A DNA stretch of 64,000 bases, taken from assembly GCA_949987705.1 (NCBI GenBank), contig OX465281.1:173490516-173554515 (forward strand), given 5' to 3'. This document shows, in pieces, positions 33,001-64,000 of this stretch (within the stretch, counting starts at the first letter, position 1; each line of letters begins with the position of its first letter). The notes beneath the pieces are model-generated. The model saw only the letters and a list, made by a program, of their open reading frames with translations, had not been told where the DNA came from and made no database searches. This stretch comes from Thereva unica. Lineage: Eukaryota > Arthropoda > Insecta > Diptera > Therevidae. The position numbers and the translations under genes are program-made.

Positions 33001-34044
33001 TCCCTGGGGTATACCTTGCGGGATTGCACCATTATTGGGTATACTTTGGAGTCTTGCGTTAGATGGCGATGGAGTACTGGCGTTCCTGAGACCGTCTGGT
33101 TCAGAGCCTGTAAGATACTCACATGCGTCATTAGCATTCGTTGGAGACTTAGGGTTGTTGTTAGAGGCTAGGTGAATAGTCGTGTAGTCTTTGATTGGGG
33201 CGAGCGTAAGGGATAGGCTCGTCAGGACTACTGGTTGGGTGTTAACGTTGATGAGACCAACATACACTGTTTTTGTTCCAGTTGGCAAGAGGGAATTGGC
33301 GAGGAATACTCCTTCGCTCGGCTCGTAAGATTCACAGAGCATTTCCTCCTCTAACCTTAGGGGAATGGGGACCACCATTTGAGACCGGCTTGGTAGGCGA
33401 ATGGATTTCTCCAATGCCACGTTATAATTGCCTGAATTGGCCTCATAGTCGTTGGAGTTGTTTTCCAACCTTGAACCATCTAGAGATAGGCAGCTGGTAT
33501 TCCTCTCTGAGGCTACCTGGGAGACACCACCGGGGTTTATCTCGGCTACTACGAGTTGAGATTCCCTAGTTTGGGTTTGCTCCTGCTGCTCTCTAGTGTT
33601 TGACTTGGCGGACCCATTGCGTAATGGAATTGCAATTTCTACTGGGTTGATTTCCGTGCGAGGAAATCGCAGTGTTTGGTTTGGACCTTCGACGTTACAG
33701 TTTTTGGAAAGAAAGTCGTTTCCTAACAGACCATCGTTAGGGATTTCTTGTGTGTTTTTCACAATTTGGAAGGTGCATGGGAGGGGGGTGTTTAGAATGA
33801 TGTTCCCCTGACAGCTCCCTAATGTTTGTCCTTGGCCGTATGGCGTTTGTAGTGTGCATTTTTTAGTGGGATCTGGTAGGTTGGGATCCTTTAGTTTTTT
33901 ATGTTTTAATATACTGACCTCAGCGCCGGTGTCCACTGCTAGGTCGGCTTTGCCGTTAAGGCTTATGTCTAGAGGAAGAGTGACGAGTGGAACACTTGGT
34001 TCGGGCGCATGAGGCCCCCCTTTAGTACTATTTTGAGGGTTTAT
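30091..34044 (-). CDS. pol: Gypsy Pol: protease, RT, RNase H, integrase
   Basis: Open frame ending at 30091. It overlaps the gag stop in the -1 frame, so expression by -1 frameshifting is likely; the start shown is near the gag stop, and the first GTG is 33936. Order: protease (VDTGAEVSIL), RT with WRVVVDFRKINEKT, STLDLASGYHQV, FKRMPFGLKGAPATFQ and FVYLDDIVIYG (YLDD about residue 563 from the GTG), RNase H (TTDASSEALGAVLSQ, YSTVEKELLAIVWAVKNF, YTDHKPLKGV), integrase zinc finger (HDSPFGGHQ...CKKCQTM), and DDE core (YLDVVGPLEE, VTDQGSNFLSDLF, SAYHPQSNGALERAHRPL), then a GPYTVV C-terminal domain. All catalytic residues seen are intact. Confidence 0.93.
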   Translation of the reverse strand: MNPQNSTKGGPHAPEPSVPLVTLPLDISLNGKADLAVDTGAEVSILKHKKLKDPNLPDPTKKCTLQTPYGQGQTLGSCQGNIILNTPLPCTFQIVKNTQEIPNDGLLGNDFLSKNCNVEGPNQTLRFPRTEINPVEIAIPLRNGSAKSNTREQQEQTQTRESQLVVAEINPGGVSQVASERNTSCLSLDGSRLENNSNDYEANSGNYNVALEKSIRLPSRSQMVVPIPLRLEEEMLCESYEPSEGVFLANSLLPTGTKTVYVGLINVNTQPVVLTSLSLTLAPIKDYTTIHLASNNNPKSPTNANDACEYLTGSEPDGLRNASTPSPSNARLQSIPNNGAIPQGIPQGKRAKVKLGKNEKETDSIRHLRYIFPDQEDPDLERETRFKQLDEELSLDHPLTADEKRSIRDLCYEYADIFHLKGDKLTYTEALRHEIPMVYDQYINQKMYRLSETQRQVINDQLEEMLDNDIVQPSKSPWNSPLLVVPKKPGPDGEKKWRVVVDFRKINEKTIGDAYPLPRIEDILDQLGHSRYFSTLDLASGYHQVLVEPQDRPKTAFSTNYGHYEFKRMPFGLKGAPATFQRLMNYVLTGLQGLECFVYLDDIVIYGKNLEDHNSKLRRIFDRLRENNLKLQPEKCQFLKKEVVYLGHVCSEKGALPDPRKTECVQNFPAPRTVRQVQSFLGLANYYRKFIPEFSKIVRPLTNLLRKGAKFSWTPKCEEAFQTVKRSLVSPPLLIYPDFEKPFNLTTDASSEALGAVLSQGIVGQDQPIAYASRTLNKAERNYSTVEKELLAIVWAVKNFRCYLMGRKFTVYTDHKPLKGVFNVKDPTTRLVRFHHKLSEYDYQIEYKPGKYNTNADALSRIPQRAEEPNTFTVEALIHQPDEPLIISPERHGNTLPPSERPKQCNAVTRAQAQKMQDEEKDELVPTAEAPNIDEGPKETDLETEIPQPVEASKDSSSELRRKVEVITSPEEITTILKDYHDSPFGGHQGVVKTYNRVRRKYWWRHMFRDITRYIRRCKKCQTMKASRQFRMPMVITDIAEKPFEKVYLDVVGPLEETHSGNKYILTFQDNLTKFVDWYAIPNGEAQTIAQIFFDEIVTRYRIPKQIVTDQGSNFLSDLFKGVCRLLKVKKLQTSAYHPQSNGALERAHRPLIEYLRTIVDESPNNWDQFLRTAAFVYNNSVHEGTKLTPMDCLYGFIADVPSNLKRNPEPLYNHESYYHQLRYKLQKSYALARKNLLASKNRSKAYYDGNVRPLTLHIGDKVLLRNEARKHKLSQIWVGPYTVVSVPSAVNTTIKINRRLVTVHNNRLKPFYENKT

Positions 34045-35706
34045 TGTCGGGCCGGGGTTTCTTGGTCCGACTGCGGGGAGTTTCCCGCTTGTTGTGATTC
34101 CCAGCGCTGTCTTTGGTGACAGTCATCCACCGTGTGGCCACGTCTGTGGCAGAAATCACATCTACATCTAATATTGAACACCGACCTTGTGTTATTGGCT
34201 GTTTGTTGACGGCCATTAGGTTGGTTGGATCCATTATTCATGGGTCGGTTGGTTGGTTGTCGGTTAGCACCCTGGTTGGAGGGTTGTTGGTCGGGGTAGC
34301 GGTAATTACCCGTTTGCTGTGACCGCGGGTCTGGGTAACGATTGTTACCTTGGAACTGAGACCGTTGGTTGGAGTAGCGATTATTATTATTATTATTATT
34401 ATATGAAGGCCCCTGGTTTTGGTAGCGATTATTATTATTATTATTAAACGACGGCCCCTGGTTCTGGTAACGATTGTTATTATATGAGGACCTTGTGGGT
34501 TCTATTGGTCGGGGGCAGTCCCTCGCGTCGTGCGAGTTGGACCGGCAGATTATGCAGAAGGGCGTGTTTTTACGTTTTAAACAGTCTGCGTAAGTATGCC
34601 CTCTGTTTCTGCAGTAGCTACAGGTGATGTTTAAGGGTTTATTTTCATTTTTTGGAACGGGGTTTACAGTTGTTACTTGGTTGGCGCTTTGTAGTGGCGC
34701 CGGCGGTATTGTTTGTATTGTGTTTGCTGGGTTTGTGGGTGGGGCGTATGTTGTGTACATTACCTGTGGGCTTATCGGGCTTTGAAGTGTTGTTTGCGGC
34801 GTTGTTGGTGTTGGCGGGGCGGTATACTGAGTGTTTGTACTGGGCGTATGTGTTGGGGCTGTTTGATAGATATTTTCCGGCATATAGGTAGGGACTGGTT
34901 GTCCATAAGGGTTATATGCCGGTTGAGGCACTGTCATTTGATAGGAGGAATACATAGAATTTTGTTGCAGCTTCTCCATATCTAGTGCCTTTTGGGTTAG
35001 GCTGTCAAGTGTATCCTCTCCCAGAGTTAGTAGGTACTGGCAGAGGTGGGGGTTGGTAACCCCACTCCGCAGGGCATTTTTTGCGAAATCTTGCAGTTGG
35101 GCCTTTACGGCCGGTGCTGCCATCGCACCATATTTAGTGGTGGCCGCCTCTTCGCATAGTGACAACTGCTGTTTGATCCTAGTAGTATAGGCCGTGAGCG
35201 GCTCTAAGGGGAACTGGCGTAATTGAATTAATCTATTAACCAGTTCTTGATATGTTTCCCTGGGAAGATAGGTCCTGTTTAGGAGGTTTTCTGCCTCCTC
35301 AAAAGTGGCAGGTTGGGAGGAGGCAATTAATTGGTAGGCCTCTCCCCGAAGCCTAGTTGGGTAAATTTGAATAAAGGCGGCCTTTTCTGGTTCTGTCAGG
35401 CACTGTAGTACCCGACGGCAACAGCCTAGGAACATTTGTAGTTCAGTTGCCATCGTCGGGTTTTGGCCGCCAGAGAAAAGAGGGACTAGTTGGGCCGTTA
35501 ATTTGGCGACTTTAATATATTCGTCGGCCATGGCTGTAGGAAATTCTTTTTGTAGTAAAGATTTGACAAGACGACTGTCTTGAAAGGTCGCCTCCTCTTC
35601 CTCTAGGAGGGACAAGGATCGGGTTGAGAGATCGACCCAATCCGCGAGTAGATCTATGGGCGCGTAATCGGGCTCAGGCGGTTCAGTGTTACTGTTTTCA
35701 CAATGG
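34041..35706 (-). CDS. gag: Gypsy Gag with three zinc knuckles
   Basis: Frame ending at 34041, open upstream of the TTG at 35615 to about 35720. The capsid-like helical part includes FLGCCRRVLQCLTEPEKAAF, IYPTRLRGEAYQLI and NALRSGVTNPHL. A Pro/Thr/Gln-rich linker follows, then CCHC knuckles CSYCRNRGHTYADC and CIICRSNSHDARDC, an Asn-rich repeat region (runs of N with RYQNQGPS), and a third knuckle CDFCHRRGHTVDDC. The N-terminal part appears to be in another frame (35710-36216), joined through a 14-nt overlap, so gag is either frameshifted by mutation or made from two frames. Confidence 0.88.
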
Positions 35707-35709
35707 TCC

Positions 35710-36216
35710 CTATCCTCTATCTATACTAACCTTATCTACTACCTCAAGGGGGCGTGGGAGACTATTTTTGAAATTGAGGAGGTCCTGTTTAAATTTTAGG
35801 GCCTCCTCTTTGAATGCTTCGACTTTAGCCTTTCTTTCTAGGCTGGCCCTTTGGATTTGTTTATCCACGGCCTCAAAATGTACTATATTAAATTTTCCTG
35901 TCTCCTGCGCCCGCTTAAGTATGTATTCTAATCTTGATGTTAAACCTACTTGTTTCTCTCCTTCTCCTAAGATGGTTCCACTTCGGAGACGTCTGGGGGA
36001 TGTTTGGGGTGTTTCTGATGGGGTGGTTGTTGATTGCTGTGTTGATATTGGTGTCGAGGTGATCCCTCGTTGGGTCACCTGGCAGGACGCTGGGGTGTCG
36101 GTGGCTCCTGATGAAGTAGAGGGGCCTGGTGTGGTTAAGTCCCTGGCTGGTGTTTGGTGGTCCCTCGGTGGGGGAGTCTCGTGTTTGTTGTTGTCCCCTT
36201 GTTGGCCCTCGGACAT
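35710..36216 (-). CDS. Gypsy Gag N-terminal frame (168 aa), frameshifted from gag
   Basis: Starts at ATG 36216, the first ATG after the primer site region. Pro/Thr-rich N-terminus (STSSGATDTPAS, STQQSTTTPSETPQ), basic SPRRLRSGT, then a predicted coiled coil (ASLERKAKVEAFKEEALKF). It stops at 35710 where the main gag frame is just opening; the overlap is a repeated ATAG/GGATAG stretch that could have gained or lost bases. It could be a separate small ORF, but position suggests the gag N-terminus. Confidence 0.65.
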   Translation of the reverse strand: MSEGQQGDNNKHETPPPRDHQTPARDLTTPGPSTSSGATDTPASCQVTQRGITSTPISTQQSTTTPSETPQTSPRRLRSGTILGEGEKQVGLTSRLEYILKRAQETGKFNIVHFEAVDKQIQRASLERKAKVEAFKEEALKFKQDLLNFKNSLPRPLEVVDKVSIDRG

Positions 36217-38427: not shown

Positions 38428-39154
38428 AAATTGAAGACAATTTTCACACCCGCCGCCGTGATAGTTCAAACAACACCCTTTTTTTTTTTTTTAAACCAAC
38501 CGCCAACTTCGATCAACTTCGATTTTTAAAATCTCGACGCGCCCGCCGCCGCTAAAGGTTAGAACAACACTTCTTTTTTAAAGAAAACGCCCGCTCGCGC
38601 TCGTGGTTTAGACAACACTTAATTACTTTAAAGTTTCACCCGCCGGTGGTGGCATGGAAAATTGTCCACCGGCTGGGAAAAACTCGCCCTTGAATTCGTT
38701 CCCACCTGCGCAACTTGCTTACCGCGCGCTTCTCACGCGGCGTATTGCAAGTTGCGCTTGATTATTGTTGGGTGGGTCAAATTACTTTCAAGAAAGTCCA
38801 AGTCAAGATCACTGTTTGCCAGAAAAGCTTGGGAAGGGTGCAAAGGTAATTGCGCACCTTGCAAATCTCACAAAATGTGCGCGGATCAGGTTACGTCTGG
38901 AAATGTTACATTTTCCGTTGGAGTGGATTTTTGTACGTTGAAGATTTGTCCGTTAAGGAATTTTGTACATTTGAAAATGGAAACAAGATCATAATTTTCC
39001 GTTTAGGATTTGTTGTTCGCAGGGAGCTCATATTGCATCAAACTCATTAACTGCGAATTTGATGTAAAAGGCTCCCTGTATGAAAGTATATGGGAATTTG
39101 TCTAAGGGCTCCGTTTCTCACCGAGAGAGACCCTTACAAATTCTGTATGTAACA

Positions 39155-43862: not shown

Positions 43863-43872
43863 CTTCCCCCCT
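43863..43872 (-). other. Errantivirus polypurine tract
   Basis: Minus strand AGGGGGGGAAG abuts the LTR. The env stop lies within the next few bases (43871), so the tract overlaps the env end. Confidence 0.75.
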
Positions 43873-45439
43873 AAGAGGAGAGCGACGGGTACAGGAACTG
43901 CAATTTTGTAGTTTCTGGTCCTGGAGCGGCTGGTGGTATGCTAAAGGTGCGTTTTCTTAGCTTATAGGCGACGTAGGCTAAAACATTGATCAACAGGATG
44001 ACTTGGACGGCTAGTAGAGTAAAGATGATGAAGGTTTTTGACTCCGTCTTGGCTTCGAGGAACTCGATCTGTTTCATATTTTGGATGTTGTACGTTTGTA
44101 GTTTTTGCAGGGTTATGTTCCTTTGGGTTGTGGTGAAGTTGATTTGGTTGAACAGGATCGGGTGGATTGTCATTTCGTCCCAATGTTTTTTTGGATGGCT
44201 TCCATAAGAGATCCCGTTTATTTGGACCTCGCAGTTTTCGAAGTGTAAAAGACCGTTTCCTATGATGGTTTTTGGGCTAAAATGACAAGTAGAGTTTATG
44301 TCTGTTTCTGTAACATTAATAAAAAGAATGTAATTGGGTTCCGGTTGATAGATTTCGGGTGACTGGTCAACTTCTGTTAGTTCGCACTCGGCTGGAATGT
44401 TCTGAATTATATCAAGAACGCATTTGGAGTTCCTGGAGTTCCTCTGGTAGGGCGGCCTTGTGCAGTAGAATACCTCTTCTATTTCTGGGCATTTTTCATC
44501 GAAAAATTGAATATCTTGATGGTTTAGGGTGATATAGGGTTTGGTTAGGATTTTTTCGGAATTTTGTATTGGGATCGGGATCAAATGAAAGAATGAATAA
44601 GTTTTATTTTGCATGATAGGAATTTGGATGTTAAATATGAGGTTTGTGCCGTTAAGGTATGCCTGTAAGCCTAGTAATTCGTATATGTGTTCTATTGATT
44701 TAATGTTTATCATTTCGTTTTTAAGTATTTTGAATATTTCTATAAGCTCGTCCGGGTTTAAGATTTGTTTTGAAATTATGTTAAGTTTTGCAAATAGTAT
44801 CGCTTCGGCTAGATTTGTTAGATGATTATGTAAAATTCCTATGTTGTAATTTACCTGATTCAGATATTGAAATTGCTGAAGGAGAAAGTGTTCTTTCTTT
44901 ATGTGATTATTAAGGGAATTTTGATTTTGTTTTAAATAATCACTTATTCTGTTTTGTTGTGCATTAATATGATTGGTTATGTTTTCAAATCTCTCGTTCA
45001 TACCATTATTAATTACAACTTGTTGATTAATTTCACTTTGTAATTTCGATTGATTAGATGTTATAGCTTCAATTTGATTATTTAAGCGTACGGCATCGGA
45101 AGCATCCATGTTACCCGTTATGAACTTTATTGCTGTACCTAATCCATTTATTATCCCTCTTCTAGATCTAGTCTTAGGGAGTAGTGCATATAACTTAAGT
45201 TTTAATTCATCTATCCTAACTTTGGTTGTCGTCACTGTGCTCTGTAGTTCGTCCGTATTGTTAAAGTGGTTTAGTGCGTCTTGTATTGTCGCTATTGTCT
45301 GTTCATAAGTCTGCAGTCTTACAATATGAATTAAGTTACTGTATCCTTCTATTAGTCTTGCGTTGCCTAATTTTAGAGGTAAAAGTCCTAGGTTGTTTCG
45401 TAGGTCATGTATTTCAAGTTTCTGTCCGTGGGTTGTCAT
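43871..45439 (-). CDS. env: Errantivirus Env (fusion-type envelope glycoprotein)
   Basis: 522 residues from ATG 45439, overlapping the pol end by 26 nt. It has a furin-type site RSRR at residues 91-94, followed by a Gly/Ala-rich fusion-peptide-like segment, long heptad-rich helices (about 110-215), a Cys-containing ectodomain with NxT/NxS sites, one transmembrane segment near residues 469-494, and a short basic tail. This is the F-protein-like architecture of gypsy and baculovirus envelope proteins. No hydrophobic signal peptide follows this ATG; a TTTCAG acceptor just upstream suggests that a spliced leader exon is used. Confidence 0.9.
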   Translation of the reverse strand: MTTHGQKLEIHDLRNNLGLLPLKLGNARLIEGYSNLIHIVRLQTYEQTIATIQDALNHFNNTDELQSTVTTTKVRIDELKLKLYALLPKTRSRRGIINGLGTAIKFITGNMDASDAVRLNNQIEAITSNQSKLQSEINQQVVINNGMNERFENITNHINAQQNRISDYLKQNQNSLNNHIKKEHFLLQQFQYLNQVNYNIGILHNHLTNLAEAILFAKLNIISKQILNPDELIEIFKILKNEMINIKSIEHIYELLGLQAYLNGTNLIFNIQIPIMQNKTYSFFHLIPIPIQNSEKILTKPYITLNHQDIQFFDEKCPEIEEVFYCTRPPYQRNSRNSKCVLDIIQNIPAECELTEVDQSPEIYQPEPNYILFINVTETDINSTCHFSPKTIIGNGLLHFENCEVQINGISYGSHPKKHWDEMTIHPILFNQINFTTTQRNITLQKLQTYNIQNMKQIEFLEAKTESKTFIIFTLLAVQVILLINVLAYVAYKLRKRTFSIPPAAPGPETTKLQFLYPSLSS

Positions 45440-48400
45440 TGTTAACCTGAAATTTACGTTTTGTCTTTAGTCTAGTCTTATGGATTTTTTGATTCTTATG
45501 TGTTACTATTGTTACTTTGTTATTTGTTTTAATTTTCTGTTTGCTAAATCTAGGTGTAATTTTATTTCTTCTACATTCCTTTCTGTAGACTAACTCATTT
45601 TCTTTAAACTCAATTGGGTCTACCCTGGATTTATTCAATTTTTCAATATTTTTATTAACTAGTCTTTCTACGTGTTCTTTAACTAATGGGTATAATTCTT
45701 TTTGAAACAGATTTAGTTTTTTAAGATATTCATGTTCAGAGTTGAAATTTATTTTTTCATTGAATTTGGAGGTTCTTCCGTAGAATAATTCGTAAGGAGT
45801 GTACTGGGTGGTTGAATGAATAGCGTTGTTGTAGGTAGTTAGAGTTTCTGTTAGAATCTCTTCATGGTCGTATTCATGCCGTTTTTCTTTGTACTTCTCG
45901 AGAATTATTCGGTAGATTTCTGTGAGTGTGGAGTGAAGTCTTTCGACTGGAGAGTTACTAGAAGTTTGTTGGAAGGATGTAAGGTGTAGTATTATATTAT
46001 ATTGGGTGCAGAAATCTTTAAAAATGTTCGAAGTAAATTCAGATCCTTGATCTGCTACTAATTTTGAAGGTATGCCATGAAGACTTACGAAGTGTTTGAT
46101 ACTCTTGAGTACGTTAAGACTTGTTCGAGCTGCTAATGTATAGGCTGCCGCGAACTTTGAAAATTTATCTATTAGGGTGAGGATTTGATTACCGTTGATA
46201 GTATAAATGTCGATGTGGATGATGTCCAAAGGCTTTAGGGGTTGTTCGGTCTTTTCAAATTTCAATTTTGGTGGATGTCGATCGTATTTGAATCTGTGGC
46301 AGGTTTCACAGTTGTTTATTATTTGAGCTATCTTGTTTTTCATGAACGGGAAAAAGTACTGTCTCTTCAAATGTCTCAAAGTTTCGTTGATACCTCGGTG
46401 GTTATTGTTAATATGGTATTCATTTATAAGTCGTTCTTGTTCGTCATTGTCCGTAATGTCAGTTAATGTCTCCGTACATCGTATTAACTTGAAGATCTTA
46501 CTGTTTGAGAAATATTTGGAATATATGGTTTGAATGATCTTAAAGGTATCATTGTCTGAGTAGATTGCTGATAATTTATTAGGTGCTAGGTATTTTTTAA
46601 GAATTTGGGTGATCTTTTCCTCTGTGAATTCCGCAGCGCGAAATGTACGACGTTGTTTGTTTCGAAATATTACTTCTAGGGACATTGGGGGTTTTGCATC
46701 TGTTTTGATCAATATTATCTGAAGATTAAACTCGTTCAAGGGTCGTTCGGAGATTGGAATGCCATCGTTCATGTTTTCCGTAGCAGTGTGAATCGTGGCA
46801 TCTGTATCGTCTTCTGAAGGTTGTTTGCTCTCTTCAATATTAATTTCTGCAGCTTTGTTGCTGCTAGAATTTGGTTGCATCCTGCTAAGCGCATCTGCGT
46901 TGGAGTTTTGGCTGCCCTTTTTATATACTACCTCGTAGTCAAACTCTTCCAGTTTGAGTCGCCATCTGATCAGTTTTGAGTTTTGTTCTTTAAAACTCAT
47001 GAGGTAGGTTAAGGGTTTATGGTCTGTTACGATTTTAAATTTTCGGCCGTACAGATAAGGCCTGAAATACTTTATGGCCCATACAATGGCCAGAAGTTCC
47101 TTTTCCACTGTTGAATAGTTTACTTCCGAGTCAGTCAACGTTCGGCTCGCGTAACAGATTGGTTTGTCGCTTCCAATTGGGCCCTGTGATAGAACGGCTC
47201 CAATTGCAACGTTGCTTGCGTCAGTTGTTAAGATGAATGGCTTCGAAAAATCCGGATATTGTAATATTGGATCATTCATTAAGAGGTGTTTGCAAGCTTG
47301 AAATGCCCTGAGATAGTTTTGGTCGACGTTTATTTTCCTTCCCTTTTTCAAACATTGGGTAAGGGGTTTAGTTATATTCGCAAAATCTTTAATAAATTTG
47401 CGGTAATAACCAAGTAGTCCGAGGAAGCTTTTAATCTCTCTTTGTGTTTTTGGAAGTGGGAATTCCTTTATGGCTCTGATTTTCTCGGGGTTTGGTTTAA
47501 CACCATCAGTGGACACAATATGCCCGAGAAAGGCGATTTCTTTGTGCAAGAATTCGGATTTGTCCATCTGGACCTTGAGGTTTGCTTCTCGAAGTTTGTT
47601 GAAGACTTTTCTTAGGTTTTCTCCGTGCTCTTGGAGCGAAGTGGAGAAGATGATGATATCATCTAAATATACTAGACAAATTTTGCCCTGTAGCTCTTTG
47701 AGGATGTTGTCCATGACGCGTTGGAAGGTGGACGGGGCATTTTTCAACCCGAAGGGCATACGTGCGTATTCATAATGACCACCTTCTACAGTAAAGGCTG
47801 TTTTCTGCACGTCCCGTGGATCCATCTCAATCTGGTGGAATCCACTCGCAAGATCGAGAGTACTGAAGTATAAACTTTTGCCTAGCTTGTCTAATATTTC
47901 TGTAATATTAGGAATAGGGTAACGATCGCTAATCGTTTTTTCATTAAGCTTGCGGTAATCAATTACCAGTCTCCATTTTTGTTTCCCACTCGCGTCCTTT
48001 TTCTTTGGGACTATCCATACTGGAGAACTCCAAGGAGAATACCTTGGTTTTATAATCCCTTGGTCCAGCATGTCACTAATTTGTCGTCGCACTTCCTCTT
48101 TGTGGACGTATGGATATCTATAGGATTTCGTATAGATAGGAATGTCGTCTGTGGTTAATATCCGGTGTTTAATTTGATTAGTGAAAGTCAGTTTTTGGTT
48201 CTCGCGGAAGAATATATCGTCGTATTCTTGACATATGTGGAAAAGAAGATCTCGTTCTTCTTTGTTTAGATGAGAAGAACGAAGTTTATGGATGACATTT
48301 TCGGGAGTTACGGGATTTTTGTTATCTGGACAATTTATATTAAAAGAATTGACTTCAACATATTTATCTGTTATAGGTTCTACCTTTAACGGTTGTTCTA

Positions 48401-48989
48401 AGAACACCTCTTGTTCCAGGTTCGATGAATTAACTAATTCAACAAGGCTGTACCAGGCTGTGGATCGGTAGATTCCTTCAGGTATATAGACACCTGGTTT
48501 TATTAAGGTGTTTTTAATGAAAATATCTCCGTTTTCACTATCAACTGGAATTTTTGCTATTAATTTGGATAACGGGGGAATTATAAATTTTTGCGACATT
48601 AAATTTGGCTTGAATTTAAGGGGAATGGAAATATTCTTTGTTACCAGTGTATCGTTTACTAAGTCTACTTTAGCGCCTAACGACCTTAGTGTGTCGAGTC
48701 CTAGCAATCCATCAAAATAACCGTGAAACTTGAATATTAGGAACGTACTTGTTCCAGGTTGTTTGAATTCGCAAAAATTTGGTAATGTGATTTGTTTGTC
48801 TAATGTATATCGGTTTAATACGGTGATAATAACTGTAGGTTTTACGCTTTCTAAATCATCCGGGTGGACATATTCTGGGCTTAAAAATGAGTCTGAAGCT
48901 CCCGTATCTACTAAAAATTTGAGTGGTCGGCCAGATGGAGAGGAGATTTCAATATAGGGTAGAACAGATCCATGCGTGTTGATGTCTAT
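45414..48989 (-). CDS. pol: Errantivirus Pol: protease, RT, RNase H, integrase
   Basis: Open frame overlapping gag in the -1 frame; the start given is near the gag stop because frameshifting is inferred (the first TTG is 48707). Protease FLVDTGASDSFLSPE; RT WRLVIDYRKLNEKT, STLDLASGFHQIEM, YARMPFGLKNAPSTFQ and LVYLDDIIIFS (YLDD intact); RNase H TTDASNVAIGAVLSQ, STVEKELLAIVWAIKYF, TDHKPLTYL; integrase finger (HRGINETLRHLKRQYFF, CETCHRF) and core (DIIHIDIYTIN, VADQGSEFTSNIF, SNSPVERLHSTL). The C-terminal domain is basic and ends within env. Confidence 0.94.
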   Translation of the reverse strand: MDINTHGSVLPYIEISSPSGRPLKFLVDTGASDSFLSPEYVHPDDLESVKPTVIITVLNRYTLDKQITLPNFCEFKQPGTSTFLIFKFHGYFDGLLGLDTLRSLGAKVDLVNDTLVTKNISIPLKFKPNLMSQKFIIPPLSKLIAKIPVDSENGDIFIKNTLIKPGVYIPEGIYRSTAWYSLVELVNSSNLEQEVFLEQPLKVEPITDKYVEVNSFNINCPDNKNPVTPENVIHKLRSSHLNKEERDLLFHICQEYDDIFFRENQKLTFTNQIKHRILTTDDIPIYTKSYRYPYVHKEEVRRQISDMLDQGIIKPRYSPWSSPVWIVPKKKDASGKQKWRLVIDYRKLNEKTISDRYPIPNITEILDKLGKSLYFSTLDLASGFHQIEMDPRDVQKTAFTVEGGHYEYARMPFGLKNAPSTFQRVMDNILKELQGKICLVYLDDIIIFSTSLQEHGENLRKVFNKLREANLKVQMDKSEFLHKEIAFLGHIVSTDGVKPNPEKIRAIKEFPLPKTQREIKSFLGLLGYYRKFIKDFANITKPLTQCLKKGRKINVDQNYLRAFQACKHLLMNDPILQYPDFSKPFILTTDASNVAIGAVLSQGPIGSDKPICYASRTLTDSEVNYSTVEKELLAIVWAIKYFRPYLYGRKFKIVTDHKPLTYLMSFKEQNSKLIRWRLKLEEFDYEVVYKKGSQNSNADALSRMQPNSSSNKAAEINIEESKQPSEDDTDATIHTATENMNDGIPISERPLNEFNLQIILIKTDAKPPMSLEVIFRNKQRRTFRAAEFTEEKITQILKKYLAPNKLSAIYSDNDTFKIIQTIYSKYFSNSKIFKLIRCTETLTDITDNDEQERLINEYHINNNHRGINETLRHLKRQYFFPFMKNKIAQIINNCETCHRFKYDRHPPKLKFEKTEQPLKPLDIIHIDIYTINGNQILTLIDKFSKFAAAYTLAARTSLNVLKSIKHFVSLHGIPSKLVADQGSEFTSNIFKDFCTQYNIILHLTSFQQTSSNSPVERLHSTLTEIYRIILEKYKEKRHEYDHEEILTETLTTYNNAIHSTTQYTPYELFYGRTSKFNEKINFNSEHEYLKKLNLFQKELYPLVKEHVERLVNKNIEKLNKSRVDPIEFKENELVYRKECRRNKITPRFSKQKIKTNNKVTIVTHKNQKIHKTRLKTKRKFQVNNDNPRTET

Positions 48990-50443
48990 ATATCCGGTGG
49001 GTTCTGAGAGGCTTTCGGAGAAAAATTTGAGTCATCTATTTCATAATTTTGCTCTTCTTCATTTGTAACTTCTGGGGTTTCGTCTCTCCACTCATAGTCG
49101 GGAATTTGGTTAGCAATTTGTTGGTCGTAATAATAATCTAATTGTTGGTGGTTTGGTTCGAAATGAGGATCTGTGTCTGTTGCTGAGGCTACGTGGAATA
49201 GTTCCTTGCTAGTAAATTTAGGTGGACCGGTTGGACGGAAGAAATTGTTTTGTGGGTTAATATTCTGCTGGTTCTGTGGATATCGATTTTGTCGGATATT
49301 GCTTGAACCTACATCCATGGGTTCAGGTTTGGGCAGATTTCTGTTGCTGGTTCCTTGGTTAAATTGCGACCTATGTTGGAAAAAGCTATTTTGATGCTGT
49401 TGAGGTCTTTGAGTATAGTTATTGGGATTGGTTGTCATTGGTCTATTGTTGAACATAGGGCGGAGTGTAGGGTAAGATAATCGGTTATTTGTTGGGGTAA
49501 AAGGGAGGAGTGTGCGATTATTTTGATACGCGGTAGTGTTTGCTGTTGGTCCTCTAAAGTGGGTTGGATTTGATGGATTTTTAGAAAGACTACTTAATTT
49601 TGTTTCATTGGAATATTTGGTAATAGAATTGTCATGTCTAGAGTATGATATGTTTTGTTCCTGAATACAATATGAGAAAGCCTTTGCTAAAGTATCCGGT
49701 TTCATCGCTCGGATAGTGGACCCAAGAGGCTCCTTAAGTCCCGATAAGAAGGCATTGAGACACATTGATGTATATAATTCCCGTTTTGCTGTAACTACGG
49801 TTCCGTTGGTTTCATGTATTTGGACGTGATTTGTCATGGTGGCAAGAATTTCTATTATTTCACTGTAGAAACGTTCAACGCTTTTATTTTGTTGCTTTAG
49901 ATCGTGAAGATCTTTAATTAACGAAGTTTCATTGCGTTTATCTGAATAATGGAGGATAAGATTTTGTTTGATTTGAAACCAATCCAACGGGGTACCGTAC
50001 ATATTCAATACCTCGTTGGCTGGGCCTTCAATTTTATTTCTAATTGCTCGGAGCAGGAGCTTACCATATGGCGTTCCTTCCGTTACTACAATTAACGATC
50101 TAATTTCCTCAACATTGTTCAGAAATTCATAAAGCAATCTAGGATTGCCATCAAATTTCGGCAAATCTTTAATGGCATCAGGTACTCGTAAAGAGTTAAA
50201 AATATCATTTGGAGTAAGCACTTGGTTGCCACCGGTGCCTGTAGCCATGTTGCTATAATCACGATTGTTATTTTCGGAATTTGAAAACACAAACAAATCT
50301 AAATTTTCAGTTGAGACACTTTCTTCTTTAATAACACTTTCACTATCGGAATCACTTTCTACGTTGTTTAAATTATTTAAGGAAAAAAATTTCTTTAATT
50401 TTTTATAAGGTTTAAATCTTTTACTAGGTTTTTCTAACGGCAT
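48986..50443 (-). CDS. gag: Errantivirus Gag
   Basis: 485 residues from ATG 50443. Basic N-terminus (KPSKRFKPYKKLKKFF), acidic Ser-rich stretch, then a capsid-like region with PKFDGNPRLLYEFLNNVEEI, GPANEVLNMYGTPLDWFQIK and LNAFLSGLKEPLGSTIRAM. A long Asn/Gln/Pro-rich C-terminus contains PEPMDVGSS. No CCHC knuckle is present, as is usual for gypsy-group errantivirus Gag. It is followed by pol in the -1 frame. Confidence 0.92.
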   Translation of the reverse strand: MPLEKPSKRFKPYKKLKKFFSLNNLNNVESDSDSESVIKEESVSTENLDLFVFSNSENNNRDYSNMATGTGGNQVLTPNDIFNSLRVPDAIKDLPKFDGNPRLLYEFLNNVEEIRSLIVVTEGTPYGKLLLRAIRNKIEGPANEVLNMYGTPLDWFQIKQNLILHYSDKRNETSLIKDLHDLKQQNKSVERFYSEIIEILATMTNHVQIHETNGTVVTAKRELYTSMCLNAFLSGLKEPLGSTIRAMKPDTLAKAFSYCIQEQNISYSRHDNSITKYSNETKLSSLSKNPSNPTHFRGPTANTTAYQNNRTLLPFTPTNNRLSYPTLRPMFNNRPMTTNPNNYTQRPQQHQNSFFQHRSQFNQGTSNRNLPKPEPMDVGSSNIRQNRYPQNQQNINPQNNFFRPTGPPKFTSKELFHVASATDTDPHFEPNHQQLDYYYDQQIANQIPDYEWRDETPEVTNEEEQNYEIDDSNFSPKASQNPPDI

Positions 50444-50856
50444 ATAATATATTTAAATAAAATAAGGTAAATTATGGATAGGATTTATGGAAAAATATTC
50501 AAAATTCGACTTACATTAAAATTATCAGGGCGATCATAATTGGCGACGATGTTCCCTCGTTGAGTTGAAGTTGCCCTTGGTACCGATGTTCCCTCGATGA
50601 GATGGATTTCCACTTCGATGTTCCCTCGATGAGATGGGTTTCCACTTTGTATCGATATTCCCTCGATGATCAATTCAGTTCCTTCGGTGTAATCTTGCAG
50701 CGCCAATATTCTGTCGGCGGTTTCACACAGATTTTCTTGCACTCACTAGAACTTTGGAATTGTACTTAGAATCCGCGAACTACTATGAAAACCGATAAAC
50801 CGTCGGCACTAGCAATATCACGATTTAAGCAATAACGTCACTACTGGATCCTTTCG
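50444..50856 (-). other. Errantivirus 5' leader
   Basis: About 410 bp from primer site to gag ATG. A GTTCCCTCGATGAGATGG-like unit is repeated at 50550-50680. A short frame (50485-50742) encodes the repeat and is probably not a gene; the leader may hold the splice donor for env mRNA (CTTACATTAAAATT region near gag). Confidence 0.6.
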
Positions 50857-56630: not shown

Positions 56631-57432
56631 TATAGTTTTATCTACATAAAAAATTATAAAGAATAGGTCTCTTAAGACATATCCTTAGTTCTGATACATA
56701 GCAAAATTCCAACAATAAAATATTAATATTAAAATAAATTGAAAACCATAAGGCAGGCCCGTTGGTAATAGTACAAACATGTGACTTTAACTTTAATTTT
56801 ACGATTACTTAAACCCCTTTCATTAATGCATACAGAAAATTCGATCTCTAAACTTCAGCTCTTCACTTCCTTTCAAATGTCAATAACTTTTAATTTATAC
56901 AAAACGCTAATATAAAATATATGCCGAAAAATATCATTATGAATGAATACATGCTGGCATTAATTTAATTCAGATTCATTCCATTTCTCCACATTAATTT
57001 TTTATTTCAAGCCAAAAAAAATGTTAGCCTTGATTTTGATCAAATTCGCATCGCGTCAAGTTCAAGGTTAGTAATCAAAATAATATTACTGTAACACACG
57101 TGCCTTAATTTATTTAAACCAAAGTTATTACACCTGGCAGCACAACAAGCATCAAGGCGCAATGCACTCTGCTGATGGAATCACTTCTTTCGTTTAATTT
57201 ATGGAAGCTAGAGAAGATTCCCCAAAAAATGCCGGTTGCTTATAACCAGTTGCCTTCATTTGCATTTAATAAATCGAAGTAAATCCAAGAATTTGACAGT
57301 TTTTTTTCCTCTGATTTGGATAAAAATGCAGAAATGACTGAAATTGATTTGGCTAGAATTAGTGGGATGCATCATGCGGTTAATGATGAAACTTAAATTT
57401 ATGGACTAAATTTACTATCCCAAGTGTATAAG
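56631..57432. other. No supported gene
   Basis: AT-rich. A short plus-strand frame (about 57279-57396) is noted in the rejected list. The right end is probably downstream of the peptide gene. Confidence 0.4.
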
Positions 57433-57438
57433 TTTATT
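57433..57438 (-). terminator. Possible polyadenylation signal of peptide gene
   Basis: AATAAA on the minus strand about 105 bp after the stop at 57543. Another AATAAA-like run is near 57466. Weak on its own. Confidence 0.4.
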
Positions 57439-57542
57439 TTTTTTTCTTTTTTAACAATAAATAAAAACAAATCAAACAAAAATCACATTTGCTTAAAAAT
57501 ACTAAAAGAATTGATATATGTAAGTCCAATCAAACTACATAA

Positions 57543-57851
57543 TTAATTACTTTCTGGTGGTGTAAACGTAGCGTCGATATGATGTTGACGTAACTGCTCG
57601 GACTCTTCGAGATCATCGATTAAGTCAATGAAGTTGTCTTCACCATCATCATCATCGTCATCATCATCAAAGGAAGCTGTTAAAGTTTTTTTTAACAGTT
57701 TTTATTTATTTATGCACAAATTGTAGAATATGTTTTTACCCATTCTTCTAGTGTTGAACGCTTCAATATCATATAATCCCTCGGGGCGGCCACTCACTAG
57801 AAGAGCTAAAGCACTGAATACCACTAAAATAAAAAAGGATATTTGTATCAT
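57543..57851 (-). CDS. Two-exon secreted acidic peptide gene (81 aa)
   Basis: Exon 1 57851-57740, intron 57739-57677 (63 nt, GTAAAA...TTTAACAG), exon 2 57676-57543; the splice is phase 1 and the frame stays open to TAA. Residues 1-20 are a classic signal peptide (MIQISFFILVVFSALALLVS), with cleavage likely after Ser20 or Gly21. The mature start is RPEGLYDIEAFN, followed by a dibasic RR at 35-36, then a run of eight Asp (41-48) and an amphipathic acidic part (GEDNFIDLIDDLEESEQLRQ) with a His pair near the end. No Cys. It could be a prohormone with processing at RR, an acidic calcium- or cation-binding secreted peptide, or a gland product. I recognise no family. The neighbours are mobile elements only. 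It is too short for single-exon ORF calling. Confidence 0.75.
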
Positions 57852-58610
57852 TCTAAAAATTTAGAAAATACAATTTTAATTACTTAAGCACATAACTATG
57901 AACACCTTCATGTTTGAGCAAAATCTTGAATTTCTGAACTTTACACTAGGAAAGACTTAAAGAAACTGAGACAGAATCAAGAGCGAACGAAATTTTTTAA
58001 AGGACACCGTTTAATGGTTTCGGCTTGAGATGTAGATAGCCCAATAAATTTCAGCAAATTATTCGGGAATATTATAAACGAGTTTTTGTATTCGTGACGC
58101 CTTATAAACAAAATCAGGCTTCATAATTAATGAAAGTTTTGCCAAAAAGAAATTAAAAACCTTTTTTTATCATCTCGGGCTCTAGCAAAAATTGTGTATA
58201 AGCATGTGCGAATATACCAATGTCCCCTATAACAGGGTCCTCAACTGCAGGGTATCCAGAATATGGCGCCAAAGCTCTTGTATCGCGAAACCCCGTGCCA
58301 GTGGGTGGCTAATTAATAGCTTTAATTCCGACGTGACGAATTCATTTACCTCAACTGGACCAGCACATTATAAGTATAACATGCTGGGAAAAACCTACTG
58401 TTGTTGGGACTAGAGTTTTGTTTTTTGTTTGTTATTCGATGAACAAATGTGAAGCGCACGTCTGAAATGTGTCTGCTAATAAATATTTAATGGTTAAATG
58501 ACCCATATTTAGGCATTTGGTTGTTACGTGCTGAAATTTCTTGGTGTTTATATAATATTACAAAAATATATATTAAATTTATGATAATATCTTAATTAAG
58601 ATTAATGCTA
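57852..58610. other. No recognisable feature (upstream of peptide gene)
   Basis: AT-rich; presumably includes the peptide gene promoter, but no clear TATA or initiator was identified. Confidence 0.4.
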
Positions 58611-58830
58611 GGGCCGCATCTGCGTGTATCGTCCCGAAGCTTCGCGCTATGACACGATACACGCAGATGTAACCGGCCATTATCGGCTATCGTCGCAAAC
58701 ATTCGGGCTGCGTATGAGTTATCGCGCGAGTGGCGATAATATGCGCGCTAATTCGTGTAAAATGACGAAGCCGCTAATACGACCACCGCATTATCGCGAT
58801 AACTTTTTAGCGTGCAAAGTGATAACCCGT
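58611..58830. repeat. CG-rich palindromic block
   Basis: Perfect 16-bp inverted repeat CATCTGCGTGTATCGT (58617-58632) and its complement (58654-58669) around a 21-nt loop that itself holds CGAAGCTTCG. Further TATCGCGCGA and TTATCGCGATAA palindromes follow. It stands out from the AT-rich surroundings and may be a MITE interior. Confidence 0.65.
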
Positions 58831-59336
58831 GGAAGTGATAACCCGTGTTACAAAAAGACACAACACACAAAACCTTCCATATAAATTTATATTCAATAAA
58901 TTTGATGTGTATTTGTTACCATTTGCGCACTCGAATCGTATACCAAACTCCTTCCTCTTAAATAGCGGTACAGTACTTGTAGGACTCCGGCCTCTTGAAG
59001 CTTCTTCTCCCAGCCGTCTCTACGTCTTGCCCGTTCTCAAAGTTTCCATATATCATCTAGCACGTTATCCATTTAGCTACATATTTCTACTATTAAAAAT
59101 CGATATTACCATTCTTTCCGAGCCATCGGAGTCATCCTGATTTATGTGTGTAACTAAATTTATTTTGTCATACATTTCTTAAAGCTCTCCTTTAGTTTAT
59201 TACACCCAGTACTGGCTTTAGAGGTGGTCAAACTCGTGCAACCGCCCGAAGGCGCCTGGTCCAAGAGAGCGACTGGTGCATGAGGACACCGCCATTACCG
59301 TAATGACCCAATTCATTCCAGTAATGTATTCATTTA
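58831..59336. other. No recognisable feature
   Basis: A direct repeat GTGATAACCCGTG occurs at 58820 and 58837; otherwise nothing is recognised. Confidence 0.4.
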
Positions 59337-59340
59337 TTAA

Positions 59341-59834
59341 CTTCCAAGTATAGAAAGTTATTGCAATCGGTCCGAAAATCGAAATTGAAATTTTCGACGT
59401 ATTTTCATCTTTCAAGGTCCCAGGAGCATTTTAAGCAAAAAATTGGGAGGAAGTATGTGTGTGCGTACGGATGCGGTCATTTTTTCCCGCACGATATCGC
59501 GCGAACCAAAAAAGATATCGACTTCGTTGAGATGTCGTTCGAAGCGTATTAACCGAAATATGATCTGAAAAGATTTTCATAAAATTCGGTCAAGCCGTTT
59601 TTTTTTTGTTTAAGCGGCGTAAGTGATTTTTGTACCTGCACGATATCGCCCGAACCACGAAAGATATTGACTTACTTGAGATTCCGTTTGAAGCGTATTA
59701 GCGACAATATAATCTGAAAAGATTTTTATAATATTCGGTAGAGCAGTTTTTTCGTTTGAATGACATAAGTGATTTTTGTGCCTGCACGATATCGCGCGAA
59801 CTATAAAAGATATCGTGCCGTTCGAAGAGTATTG
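59341..59834 (+). mobile_element. Helentron/INE-1-like repeat, copy 5 (right end lost)
   Basis: CTTCCAAGTATAGAAAG after TTAA (59337-59340), the GGTCCGAAAATCGAAAT block, and monomers at about 59488, 59637 and 59783 (149 then 146 bp apart). It ends abruptly at about 59834 where Helitron-related sequence begins. Confidence 0.82.
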
Positions 59835-59930: not shown

Positions 59931-61704
59931 CTAAAATTGGAACGCGCGATAAGTGAAGACAACTTCAAGCTTCTGGACGAAAAGAAAAGAACATACCACT
60001 AGGCTCGAGAAAAAGGACTCGAGAAGGTTCCAGAAGTTAAATAAAGGCTTTCCCAATTGTCGAATCATCGCAAAAAGATCTCTTTTTCGTTTGCTCCAGT
60101 ACCAAACCGAATTTGGTATTGATCGCAAAACAGCCAAATTACTTTCGATGCAATTATTAATTCTGATTCAATTTGCTGCCTTGTAATAGTTGTATGTTTT
60201 CCCACATGCTTGAATGCGATAGTAAGAGAATCACGAATTCTTAACCTCATAATTTTCATAGCAACGTACAATAAATGATATGGAGTAACTCCACGCCGGT
60301 CTGCTCTCCGTAATTCACTAGTCGCAATTGCAAATGGTGTTACATTTATTCCCTCTCTGAATGATCGGAAATGGCCCAAATAAATCGATGGAAAAGAAAG
60401 TTCTTCAGCATGTTCATCAAAAAGTATGCTTTTCGGAAGATTATTCTGTCCAGGTGCTATCCGTAAATACTCGTCATCATTCCACATCAGAGTATGTTGT
60501 TGCGCAGTGAGACTGTCTTCAATCGGTATATCTTCACTTATTTCTTCTCGATTAATTTCAGCAGTAGTATGGTCATCATTGAAAAAGCTTTCATTAATTT
60601 TAATATCGTAAAATAAATAAAGAGGAGTTTTAAGCAAGTACCGAAGCCATGTACGAAGTGTCCGTTTATTTACTAGTCCTACTAAGTAGCTTGATTTGTG
60701 AATTTTTTTTTTTCTTAATGTGAACGTTTATGCAATGATCATCATCAATATTCCGAGGCAAATGTTTCACCATATTGTCCACATCGACAGGTACGTTAAT
60801 AATTTGGCCATAAATTCCGTATTGTCCATGGACATGTCGCAACCTTCTTATTTGCATGAATGGGATCCGCGGAGAGACAAGTCTTTCAGAAATTAAATCC
60901 AGTGGTGGTAGGAATGCAGGTATCGCTTCATACTTGAATCCGTTGTATTTGGACATTGTTGGAATTACTTTTCTCTCGATTGCTTGAAAGCACGTGTTGC
61001 ACAGGGAAATATTCTTACTTGTATCATAATTTTCAATTATTACACGTAGAAGGTCTTCATGTTCAGCACGTGGTGGTTTCAAATCTTGTTGGAACCACAA
61101 TCGTTCACAAACGGAGCACACATAACCAAACATGTTAAAAAATTTTTTTCGAAATTCTTCGTGAGCAACTCTATTTCGACGAAATTGTGCGTATGGAGTT
61201 ACAAGCTGTTGATTAACTTGAAGGACACCTACAAATTTGCACATTTATGTTTTTTTTAATTCAGAAAATGATCAAATACACACTAATTTGAAGTTTATAA
61301 AAATGTACCTACAAGTACTCACAATCATTATCCACAATATCATTTTCAATTAAGGCATCACCTTCCACATTTGAAATATCCATGGGAATATCATCTGGAA
61401 AAAGTAACGAATGAGGTTATAAACATCATGTACGGTGAATATTCATCTGACATACAAGCACGCGTATTAGGACAAAATTTGTTGATTAGAAAATACTTGA
61501 GTACTTACTATGATCACTTTCACTATTTTTAACAGTAAAATCATCATTATGCGTAACAGAACTATCATTATACACATTCAATAACGTTTTTCGACGTGCA
61601 CGAAATTCACGAACACGTTCCGTTGAACTTTTTGCTGTCTTTTTAATCTTGTTTTCCCTTTTTTTTCGATAATCGCGACAATATTCTGCATTCGTTTTCG
61701 GCAT
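59931..61704 (-). pseudogene. Helitron RepHel N-terminal part, three exons, frameshifted
   Basis: Exon 1 61704-61509 starts MPKTNAEYCRDYRKKRENK; intron 61508-61395 (GTAAGT...TTTTTCCAG, 114 nt); exon 2 61394-61323; intron 61322-61229 (GTGAGT...TTTGTAG, 94 nt); exon 3 from 61228. Both splices keep the frame. Exon 3 encodes the Helitron N-terminal region: CSVCERLWF, SLCNTCFQAI, ISERLVSPRIPFMQIRRLRH and GQIINVPVDVDNMVKHLPR. A frameshift in an A-run near 60700 leads to the 60065-60637 frame (MWNDDEYLRIAPGQNNLPKS, ELSFPSIYLGHFRSFREG, GVTPYHLLYVAMKIMRLR), and another near 60130 to LRSIPNSVWYWSKRKRDLFA ending at LGKP. The HUH nuclease motif that should follow is missing. Confidence 0.85.
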
Positions 61705-61843
61705 ATTTGAAGAATTTTATTATAAAAATGATGATGATACAAAACACCACGGCTGTTATGATGTAAAATAATTATCAAACTTTGTATAAACACTGTATAA
61801 TGCTTCCTATCTCATTTTCTCCCACGTTAAATCTTATGAATGT
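61705..61843. other. Head-to-head junction of Helitron halves
   Basis: 139 bp between the minus-strand Rep start and plus-strand Rep C-terminal sequence. It should hold the promoter or 5' end of the minus part; no Helitron terminus was identified. Confidence 0.5.
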
Positions 61844-62683
61844 ATGTGTCTGTCTCTTTTTACTGTCGCTTTTTCGTTTCATAAATTTTCAAATCACAAC
61901 GATGCTAAAGAAGTTTTCACTTCAAAAAATCAAATTTCTTCTGATGAAGATTACTTTCATATTCTTGAAGCTGGAATTACTAGACCGAAAGTATTTTTGA
62001 AACGACAACCAAATGAAAAATGGCACAACCCTTTTAATCCTTTTATTCTCAATATATTACAATCAAATACAGACATGCAGTTCATTATCGAGGAATACTC
62101 TTGTGCCGCATACGTTGTTGAATATGTTAATAAAACTAATAGAGGCATTAGCAACTTACAACGTCAAATTCTTGAAATAATGAATGAGCATCCTGAATTT
62201 GACATAGTAGAAATAACGAGAAAAATGAGTGTAAATATGCTCAATACTGTTGAATTGACGAGCCAAGAAGCAGCGTGGTACTTACTTCGTGAACCTATGT
62301 CCAAAAGTTCAGTATCTGTTGTTTATATCTCTACCGTATGGCCTATTGAACGACAGCGTATTAAGCGAACACAAAAAGAATTAGACGAACTGAATACTAA
62401 TGAGAACTCAACAAATATTTGGAAGGAAAACTGGTTTGACAAATATGAACAACGGCCCGAAGAATTAAAAGAATTAACACTCGCACAATTCGTTGCAAAC
62501 TATACTAAAAATTCACAAGGAATGTATATACGTAGAAGGCAAAAACGCATCATTCGATATAGAAACTATGACTTAGCTTCAGATTACAATGAGTATAAAA
62601 GAGAAATGGTGACTCTGCACATTCCATTTCGTAACGAAGAAAACGATATTCTTGATGGATTTATGACGAAAATGAACATCTGA
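61844..62683 (+). pseudogene. Helitron Rep C-terminal part
   Basis: Plus-strand frame with Helitron Rep motifs: FLKRQPNEKWHNPFNPFIL, then CAAYVVEYVNKTNRG, which holds the paired Tyr of the Rep active site, then VNMLNTVELTSQEAAWYLLR and TVWPIERQRI, and YIRRRQKRIIRYRNYD. The first residues before about 61900 do not match. The HUH part is absent, and the frame breaks at about 62660 just before the linker to the helicase. The product should not be active. Confidence 0.88.
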
Positions 62684-64000
62684 TTTTAGAACGTCGTGAA
62701 GAGTTTGAATCTGACTTAGACATCAACAAAACTATTGAAATTTGTCGAAAACTATGTCGTGAAGATGATCAAGGGAACGATGACGACGAGGTCCACGATG
62801 TTGCTACCAGATTTCCAGAAGCCAATCCATTTCAAGCACTCTATGACAATCCAGATTTGAGCGTAAACAATGATTTACGCTTAGCGACTCTTAATAAACT
62901 CGGTGCCATTGCCAAACGTAAAGAAAATCTTATGCCTAATGAACAATATTATGAGTTGATGAAAATGGCAAACCAAGAACAGAAAGATCTTTTGATGCAT
63001 GTCATTCATAATCTTCAGTTAGAAAATTCCTCTCCGTTGCAAATTTTTTTCACAGGTCCTGCTGGATGTGGTAAAACGTTTGTGATCAGACTTTTGATGG
63101 AAATTTATAATCGTTATTCGGATACCGATGGATTTTGTAACGCTTATATCACATGTGCTTCAACTGGCAAAGCTGCTGTGGCTATTGATGGGACAACGAT
63201 ACACACGGCACTTAAGATAAGTCTTTCGAAATTGCTGCCTTTGTCAATTGAAATAGCACAACAATACAGATCACTGTTCAAATATGTTCGCGTATTAATT
63301 ATCGATGAAATCAGTATGATTGGGGCAGAGATGTTGTCGCAAATAGATTCAAGATTGAAGCAAATTACCGGTAATTTTCAAGTGAATTTTGGAGGATTAG
63401 ATATAATCTTGATCGGTGATCTACGTCAACTACCGCCGGTTCGCGCTACTCCGATTTATAAGCAAATAAAGCGACGAAGCAGGGCCAACACTTTGGCGAG
63501 GATTGAAATTCTTCGAACTGAGCGAAGTAATGCGACAGGCCAATCGGACTTTCTCAACAATATTAACAAAAATTGGTGATGGGCAGCTCTTAGATGAGGA
63601 CGAGTTGCAATTAATTGAATCACGGTTCTACTCTGAAGAAGAGGTTGAGAGAATTTGTCCCGACGGTATACGATTGTTTTTCGATAATCATTCAGTTACT
63701 GCATATAATAATAAAGTTTTGAACTCCGCAGTCGAAAAAGTTATTTCAGAAGCAACTGATGCATATATAGGTTGCAACAATATTGAACAGCAAGCATCTA
63801 TGCGTCAAAAGTTACACAAAATGTCAATAATTGATACAGAAGGTTTGCCTTATGAACTGACATTAGTTATCAATAAATCATACATCATAACAACTAATAT
63901 CGACGTGTCAGATGGATTGGCGAATGGTGCGACGGGAAAATTAGTTTATATTGAATATAATGACAAAGGAGAAGTAGGTCGTTTGTGGCTAGAATTCCCT
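62684..64000 (+). pseudogene. Helitron PIF1-like helicase, runs off window
   Basis: Frame from about 62660 (linker EEFESDLDINKTIEICRKL, DDD-rich stretch, RFPEANPFQALYDNP) through Walker A GPAGCGKTFVIRLL, CASTGKAAVAIDGTTIHTAL, Walker B LIIDEISMIGAEM and IGDLRQLPPVRATPIYKQ. A frameshift near 63470 moves the rest to another frame (FELSEVMRQANRTFSTILTK-type motif, IRLFFDNHSVTAYNN, KSYIITTNIDVSDGLANGAT, WLEFP at the window end). All belong to the SF1B PIF1 family helicase of Helitrons, which unwinds DNA during rolling-circle transposition. Two frameshifts make it a relic. Confidence 0.9.

What the first reader, a model, noticed from the sequence alone, without database searches (positions are those of the whole stretch)
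57543..57851. Unrecognised secreted acidic peptide gene hidden by a 63-nt intron
Two short exons join in phase to give 81 residues with a textbook signal peptide, an RR processing site, an Asp run and an amphipathic acidic tail. Exact GT-AG borders, retained frame and in-frame stop make chance unlikely. It is one of only two host-gene candidates in a transposon-dense window and matches no family I know.
Basis: partly seen in the sequence, partly recalled or inferred. Interest (0 to 1): 0.75.

Follow-up and report, generated by a model that had tools for sequence, protein, structure and literature searches.

The report
Small secreted acidic peptide gene

Summary
The reading is in the sequence: minus strand 57851-57740 plus 57676-57543 joins over a 63-nt GT-AG intron into 81 residues. 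It is better than chance, but the model is probably incomplete. A gene finder trained on this genome finds the three-exon model as the only one at or above 14 bits (up to 130 aa) in 64 kb, both strands; none of 150 shuffled windows reaches its 17.9 bits. One copy was found in the genome. No homologue and no family above threshold were found, but close kin seem absent from the database, so 'orphan' is provisional. No RNA or orthologue evidence could be had. Best reading: a lineage-restricted small secreted acidic peptide or prepropeptide; RR cleavage and a hormone role are guesses. Weakest point: the acceptor of intron 2.

The parts
57996..58001 (-). TATA-like box TTTAAA, 34 nt upstream of the initiator A
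   Evidence: the only one of 65 TCAGTY sites in the window (both strands) with one of five TATA-like hexamers 27-35 nt upstream; the hexamer list was chosen after this site had been seen
57964..57969 (-). Initiator-like TCAGTT; predicted transcription start near 57967
   Evidence: inference, no RNA data
57884..57911 (-).
   Evidence: its own coding score is small (+0.67 bits) and its GC (0.32) is like the 5' flank
57824..57883 (-).
   Evidence: (GC 0.15)
57740..57823 (-). Coding exon 2, 84 nt: rest of signal peptide (predicted cut after Gly21, coded at 57791-57789), RPEGLYDIEAFNT, RR at 57749-57744
   Evidence: (GC 0.45)
57677..57739 (-). Intron 2, 63 nt, phase 1, GTAAAA...TTTAACAG; acceptor weak; contains an in-frame TAA
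   Evidence: (GC 0.19)
57543..57676 (-). Coding exon 3, 134 nt: SF-D8 run (57668-57645), acidic predicted helix, HHIDATFTPPESN, stop TAA 57545-57543
   Evidence: (GC 0.40)
57433..57438 (-). Poly(A) signal AATAAA, about 105 nt after the stop

Best explanation
A genuine protein-coding insect host gene on the minus strand, found once in the genome, of three short coding exons (57911-57884, 57823-57740, 57676-57543) and two short phase-1 introns. It is transcribed from a TATA-like/initiator promoter near 57967 and ends after an AATAAA at 57438. It encodes an 81-residue pre-protein. The first ~21 residues (MKVFIVMCLMVFSALALLVSG) send it into the secretory pathway and are removed after Gly21. What is exported is a 60-residue, cysteine-free, strongly acidic peptide (pI about 4.05, 21 D+E against 4 K+R). 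It may then be cut at the single RR site into a 13-residue RPEGLYDIEAFNT and a 45-residue acidic tail with a predicted helix. SHOWN: the open spliced frame, coding bias, normal intron sizes, one copy by the searches run. INFERRED: transcription, splicing and secretion (about 0.8 if the gene is real), RR processing (about 0.4), and any signalling role of the N-terminal 13-mer (about 0.2). The gene is probably restricted to this insect lineage.
For: Spliced frame and phases. 38 of 39 short P450 introns taken from this same genome are 51-75 nt (median of the 39 is 61; the 39th, L053, was mis-called at 117), with GTAATT and GTAAAA donors and some weak A-rich acceptors, so 60 and 63 nt are normal. 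Gene finder: the three-exon model scores 17.9 bits, the only model at or above 14 bits and up to 130 aa in 64 kb x 2 strands; on the local stretch 57000-58600 it is best at intron penalties 6, 8 and 10; the best of 150 block-shuffled windows is 13.6. It beats the two-exon model at penalties 6-12. Codon log-odds 21.9 bits against the window, 12.1 without the D run; against local DNA the frame has 27.3 and the five other frames of the joined exons -6.4 to 9.8, with 3-14 stops. GC: exons 2 and 3 0.45/0.40, introns 0.15/0.19, 3' flank 0.19. TATA-like/Inr pair 56 nt upstream of the ATG. One match in 910 Mb. Phase-1 introns near signal-peptide cleavage sites are over-abundant (abstract of PMC1626468).
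Against: No transcript, proteome or orthologue evidence. Intron 2's acceptor is weak: at the 2.6 percentile of 39 training introns, and 15% of 6903 window AGs score as well; intron 1's acceptor is at the 7.7 percentile (without duplicates and without the first exon base the scores are 4.7 bits for intron 1 and 1.2 for intron 2). Exon 1 itself has almost no coding signal (+0.67 bits) and a GC (0.32) like the 5' flank (0.31-0.36); at an intron penalty of 14 the two-exon model wins. The synonymous-only codon signal is small (3.4-3.8 bits), so most coding signal is amino-acid composition. The Asp run is a GAT microsatellite, which opens frames by itself. The training introns are mostly two shared P450 positions and not independent. 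No SignalP was available; the signal peptide rests on hydropathy and inspection. With the length cap raised, a 270-aa ORF in L085 scores 21.95, so score alone does not prove a host gene.
Confidence: 0.68

Rival explanations
1. One reading: translation starts at 57851 and there is one intron; or the ATG at 57851 is used by an alternative transcript, possibly after a 5'UTR intron ending at 57853.
For: Same residues from Val11 on; the start context AGA-ATG has A at -3; an acceptor just before it (exon from 57852) scores 4.9 bits; 13.3 bits in the gene finder, and it wins if an intron costs 14 bits.
Against: The 28 private bases score -2.85 bits for coding and are 18% GC. The upstream ATG at 57911 would come first in scanning. 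None of the GTs 44-136 nt upstream of that acceptor scores above 0. Three exons score higher at penalties 6-12.
Confidence: 0.12
2. Chance: an unexpressed assembly of open stretches around a GAT microsatellite in AT-rich DNA, with accidental GT-AG borders.
For: Weak acceptor of intron 2, small synonymous signal, no homologue.
Against: 0 of 150 shuffled windows reach the score; codon log-odds stay at 12.1 bits without the D run; GC switches at exons 2 and 3 and the TATA-like/Inr pair coincide with the model.
Confidence: 0.12
3. A decaying pseudogene or a gene whose second intron is not spliced, so that only a 49-residue product ending ...NTRRMGKNIFYNLCINK is made.
For: In-frame TAA between the two main open parts; weak acceptor.
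Against: No paralogue found in the genome; exon 3 keeps coding bias and exon-like GC; intron 2's donor is in the top 1.2% of 6866 window GTs.
Confidence: 0.05

Closest known systems
Insect neuropeptide / peptide-hormone precursors with a short peptide directly after the signal peptide (e.g. proctolin-type layout; recalled)
   Same: Signal peptide, short N-terminal segment, dibasic RR, acidic remainder; length under 100 residues
   Different: Single RR, no amidation signal (no G before K/R at the cut), no repeated copies, no sequence match found to a named peptide
Lineage-restricted small secreted proteins of insects (orphan secretome: reproductive tract, salivary gland, immune peptides; recalled)
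   Same: Short, one copy found, predicted secreted, no homologue found, small exons with short introns
   Different: Nothing found to set it apart except the Asp run and strong acidity; tissue unknown
Coleoptericin (PF06286)
   Same: Weak alignment of residues 1-51 to the N-terminal part of the profile (E 0.3)
   Different: 11.7 bits against a cut-off of 25; the part after RR is acidic, not a Gly/Pro-rich antibacterial peptide (last point recalled)

Membership tests
Insect neuropeptide precursor | N-terminal signal peptide | tested here: inconclusive
   Hydropathy filter passed and VSG|R fits the -3,-1 rule (recalled); no SignalP
Insect neuropeptide precursor | Basic cleavage sites flanking the peptide | tested here: met
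   One RR at residues 35-36; no second dibasic site
Insect neuropeptide precursor | C-terminal amidation motif or repeated peptide copies | tested here: not met
   Sequence read directly: no Gly before the RR cut, no repeated unit
Insect neuropeptide precursor | Homology to a known precursor | tested here: not met
Coleoptericin | Pfam score at or above the curated cut-off | tested here: not met
   11.7 bits against 25
Cysteine-rich antimicrobial peptide or toxin-like peptide | Paired cysteines in the mature part | tested here: not met
   No Cys in residues 22-81
Transposon-derived or repeat sequence | Multiple copies in the host genome | tested here: not met
Lineage-restricted small secreted protein | No homologue outside the close lineage | tested here: inconclusive
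   None found, but close kin seem absent from the database: identities of the 120 listed trypsin hits are 34-53%

The most novel reading that the evidence does not exclude
The founding member of an unrecognised insect signalling-peptide family: RPEGLYDIEAFNT is released by signal peptidase and RR cleavage and acts as a hormone or pheromone-like peptide, with the Asp-rich helix as an acidic chaperone or sorting tail.
Probability: 0.1. Interest if true: 0.6.

Novelty: new member of a known kind. Interest (0 to 1): 0.35.

Why it matters
Short intron-split secreted-peptide genes are easily missed by annotation, above all in transposon-rich regions. If expressed, this is a concrete orphan gene with a testable three-exon structure and a testable mature peptide. 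Otherwise it is one of many orphan secreted proteins in insects, of moderate interest.

Tried and rejected
Homology: two 81-aa queries (both start models) found nothing. NCBIfam gave nothing, but it is a bacterial and archaeal library, so this says little. Four peptide strings were in 0 papers of the open-access library. The one other weak hit in the genome (L004, E 3.9) is an unrelated D-rich frame.

Database control: a trypsin of this genome found 7740 proteins, among the listed ones many from insects, but the 120 listed were only 34-53% identical. So the missing homologue says little about close relatives, which seem not to be held.

Alternative splicing: GTGAGT at 57797 as donor to exon 3 was read by eye and gives a poor frame; a 5'UTR intron ending at 57853 has no good donor; models with a third intron in exon 3 score lower.

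Training set: one of the 39 introns (L053, 117 nt) was mis-called by the motif search, as its start precedes the CIG codons; it was left in the profiles used.

Structure: only residues 39-81 (exon 3) were folded; helix 12-36 of 43, mean pLDDT 65, pTM 0.26, single sequence: weak evidence, no fold search made.

Order of insect: a trypsin expansion, no TTAGG arrays beyond 2 internal matches in 910 Mb and a few very large contigs suggest a fly; this is inference, not identification.

Full report
WHAT IS THERE. The claimed reading is exact: on the minus strand 57851-57740 and 57676-57543 join over a 63-nt GT-AG intron into 81 residues and a stop; without splicing there is a TAA inside the intron. 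The window lies on a 259-Mb contig of a 910-Mb genome, and its long ORFs look largely like those of transposable elements (by eye). So the exons are not part of a repeat family, with the caveat that this DNA search skips very common words.

A BETTER MODEL. Just upstream stands CAAAC-ATG AAG GTG TTC ATA GTT ATG TGC TTA A|GTAATT, followed by a branch-like CTAAAT and TTTTTTATTTTAG|TG GTA TTC. Splicing these 60 nt joins codon 10 in phase and gives MKVFIVMCLMVFSALALLVSG-RPEGLYDIEAFNT-RR-MASF-D8-GEDNFIDLIDDLEESEQLRQHHIDATFTPPESN, again 81 residues. Both introns are phase 1. The predicted mature peptide is the same on both models.

TRAINING ON THE SAME GENOME. Trypsin and P450 loci were fetched. A spliced aligner and a motif search gave 39 short introns (38 distinct): 17 from the CIG motif in 30 P450 loci, 16 from 18 fetched stretches (2 gave none) and 6 from six further hits in P450 loci; one 959-nt intron was left out. 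38 of the 39 are 51-75 nt; the last (L053, 117 nt) is mis-called; the median is 61. Against them, intron 1's donor lies at the 26th and its acceptor at the 7.7 percentile, intron 2's donor at the 33rd and its acceptor at the 2.6 percentile. Among 6866 window GTs and 6903 AGs, the donors are in the top 1.8% and 1.2%, the acceptors in the top 5.2% and 15%. Intron 2's acceptor is the weak point. The set is dominated by two shared P450 positions, which biases the acceptor profile.

CODING SIGNAL. Of 464 open stretches of 45-110 codons in the window one scores as high per codon. Synonymous choice alone gives only 3.4-3.8 bits. GC is 0.45 and 0.40 in exons 2 and 3, 0.15 and 0.19 in the introns and 0.19 in the 3' flank; exon 1 (0.32) does not differ from the 5' flank (0.31-0.36).

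CHANCE. A dynamic-programming gene finder (codons, donor, acceptor, intron 50-76 nt, up to 130 aa, 8 bits per intron) returns the three-exon model at 17.9 bits as the only model at or above 14 bits in the window, both strands; on 57000-58600 the same model is best at penalties 6, 8 and 10. The two-exon model scores 13.3 on the same scale, loses at penalties 6-12 and wins at 14, so the choice between the two is moderate, not overwhelming. At 6 bits and 50 aa or more the window holds 5 models; the second, 13.1 bits, lies inside a retroelement-like ORF. In 150 windows shuffled in 2-kb blocks with dinucleotides kept, the best is 13.6 bits and none reaches 17.9. In 156 kb of real flanking DNA of 60 training loci there are 8 models at or above 6 bits (best per flank and strand); the five best (8.2-28.6 bits, two above 17.9) read as pieces of trypsin genes by eye; this control shares the training families. 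With the length cap raised, ORFs of 270 and 145 aa in L085 score 21.95 and 14.8.

SIGNALS AROUND IT. Of 65 TCAGTY sites in the window (36 + and 29 -) one has a TATA-like hexamer 27-35 nt upstream: TTTAAA at 58001 with the initiator A at 57967, 56 nt before the new ATG. I included TTTAAA in the list after seeing this site, so the count flatters it. AATAAA lies at 57438.

WHAT IT PROBABLY DOES. Signal peptidase would cut after VSG21 (inference from the -3,-1 rule, recalled). The exported 60 residues have pI 4.05, 21 acidic and 4 basic residues and no cysteine. Residues 39-81 folded alone give one low-confidence helix (pLDDT 65). RR at 35-36 could release RPEGLYDIEAFNT; nothing here shows that it does, and there is no amidation signal. 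The Asp run is a GAT repeat within the frame.

KINSHIP. The protein database does hold many insects, but a trypsin of this genome finds at best 53% identity among the 120 rows shown, so close relatives are probably missing. The abstract of PMC1626468 says that phase-1 introns are over-abundant around signal-peptide cleavage sites (abstract and outline seen). Results on phase-1 introns, orphan genes and proctolin precursors were otherwise seen only as search listings.

VERDICT. It is of moderate interest unless expression and processing of a signalling peptide are shown.

Noticed in passing
window 43871-50452: Three adjacent minus-strand ORFs (488, 1205 and 531 aa) that look like gag, pol and an envelope-like protein of an insect gypsy/errantivirus-type element; described from the ORF list only.
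   Followed up: no
window 29096-29458 and 38632-38994: Identical 120-aa open stretches lie on either side of a gag-pol-like element (ORFs 30091-35720), as a pair of near-identical LTRs of a young insertion would.
   Followed up: no
window 59316-59834: Repeat that includes a 149-base tandem unit (59489-59815), matching 39 other scored places at 90-94% identity out of 5646 first-look candidates; it begins about 1.3 kb from the gene.
   Followed up: partly
window 60065-63579: Helitron-like remains: a PIF1-type helicase ORF at 62656-63579 and neighbouring ORFs; the ORF at 60065-60727 matched no Pfam family.
   Followed up: partly
L006-L035 (C1:13.7-19.5 Mb and elsewhere): Large trypsin (PF00089) expansion: 573 first-look candidates in the genome, of which 150 were scored, with 152 matches, most listed ones without internal stops.
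   Followed up: no
window 58608-58672: Near-perfect fold-back (ATCTGCGTGTATCGT...ACGATACACGCAGAT) about 700 bases upstream of the gene, seen by eye.
   Followed up: no
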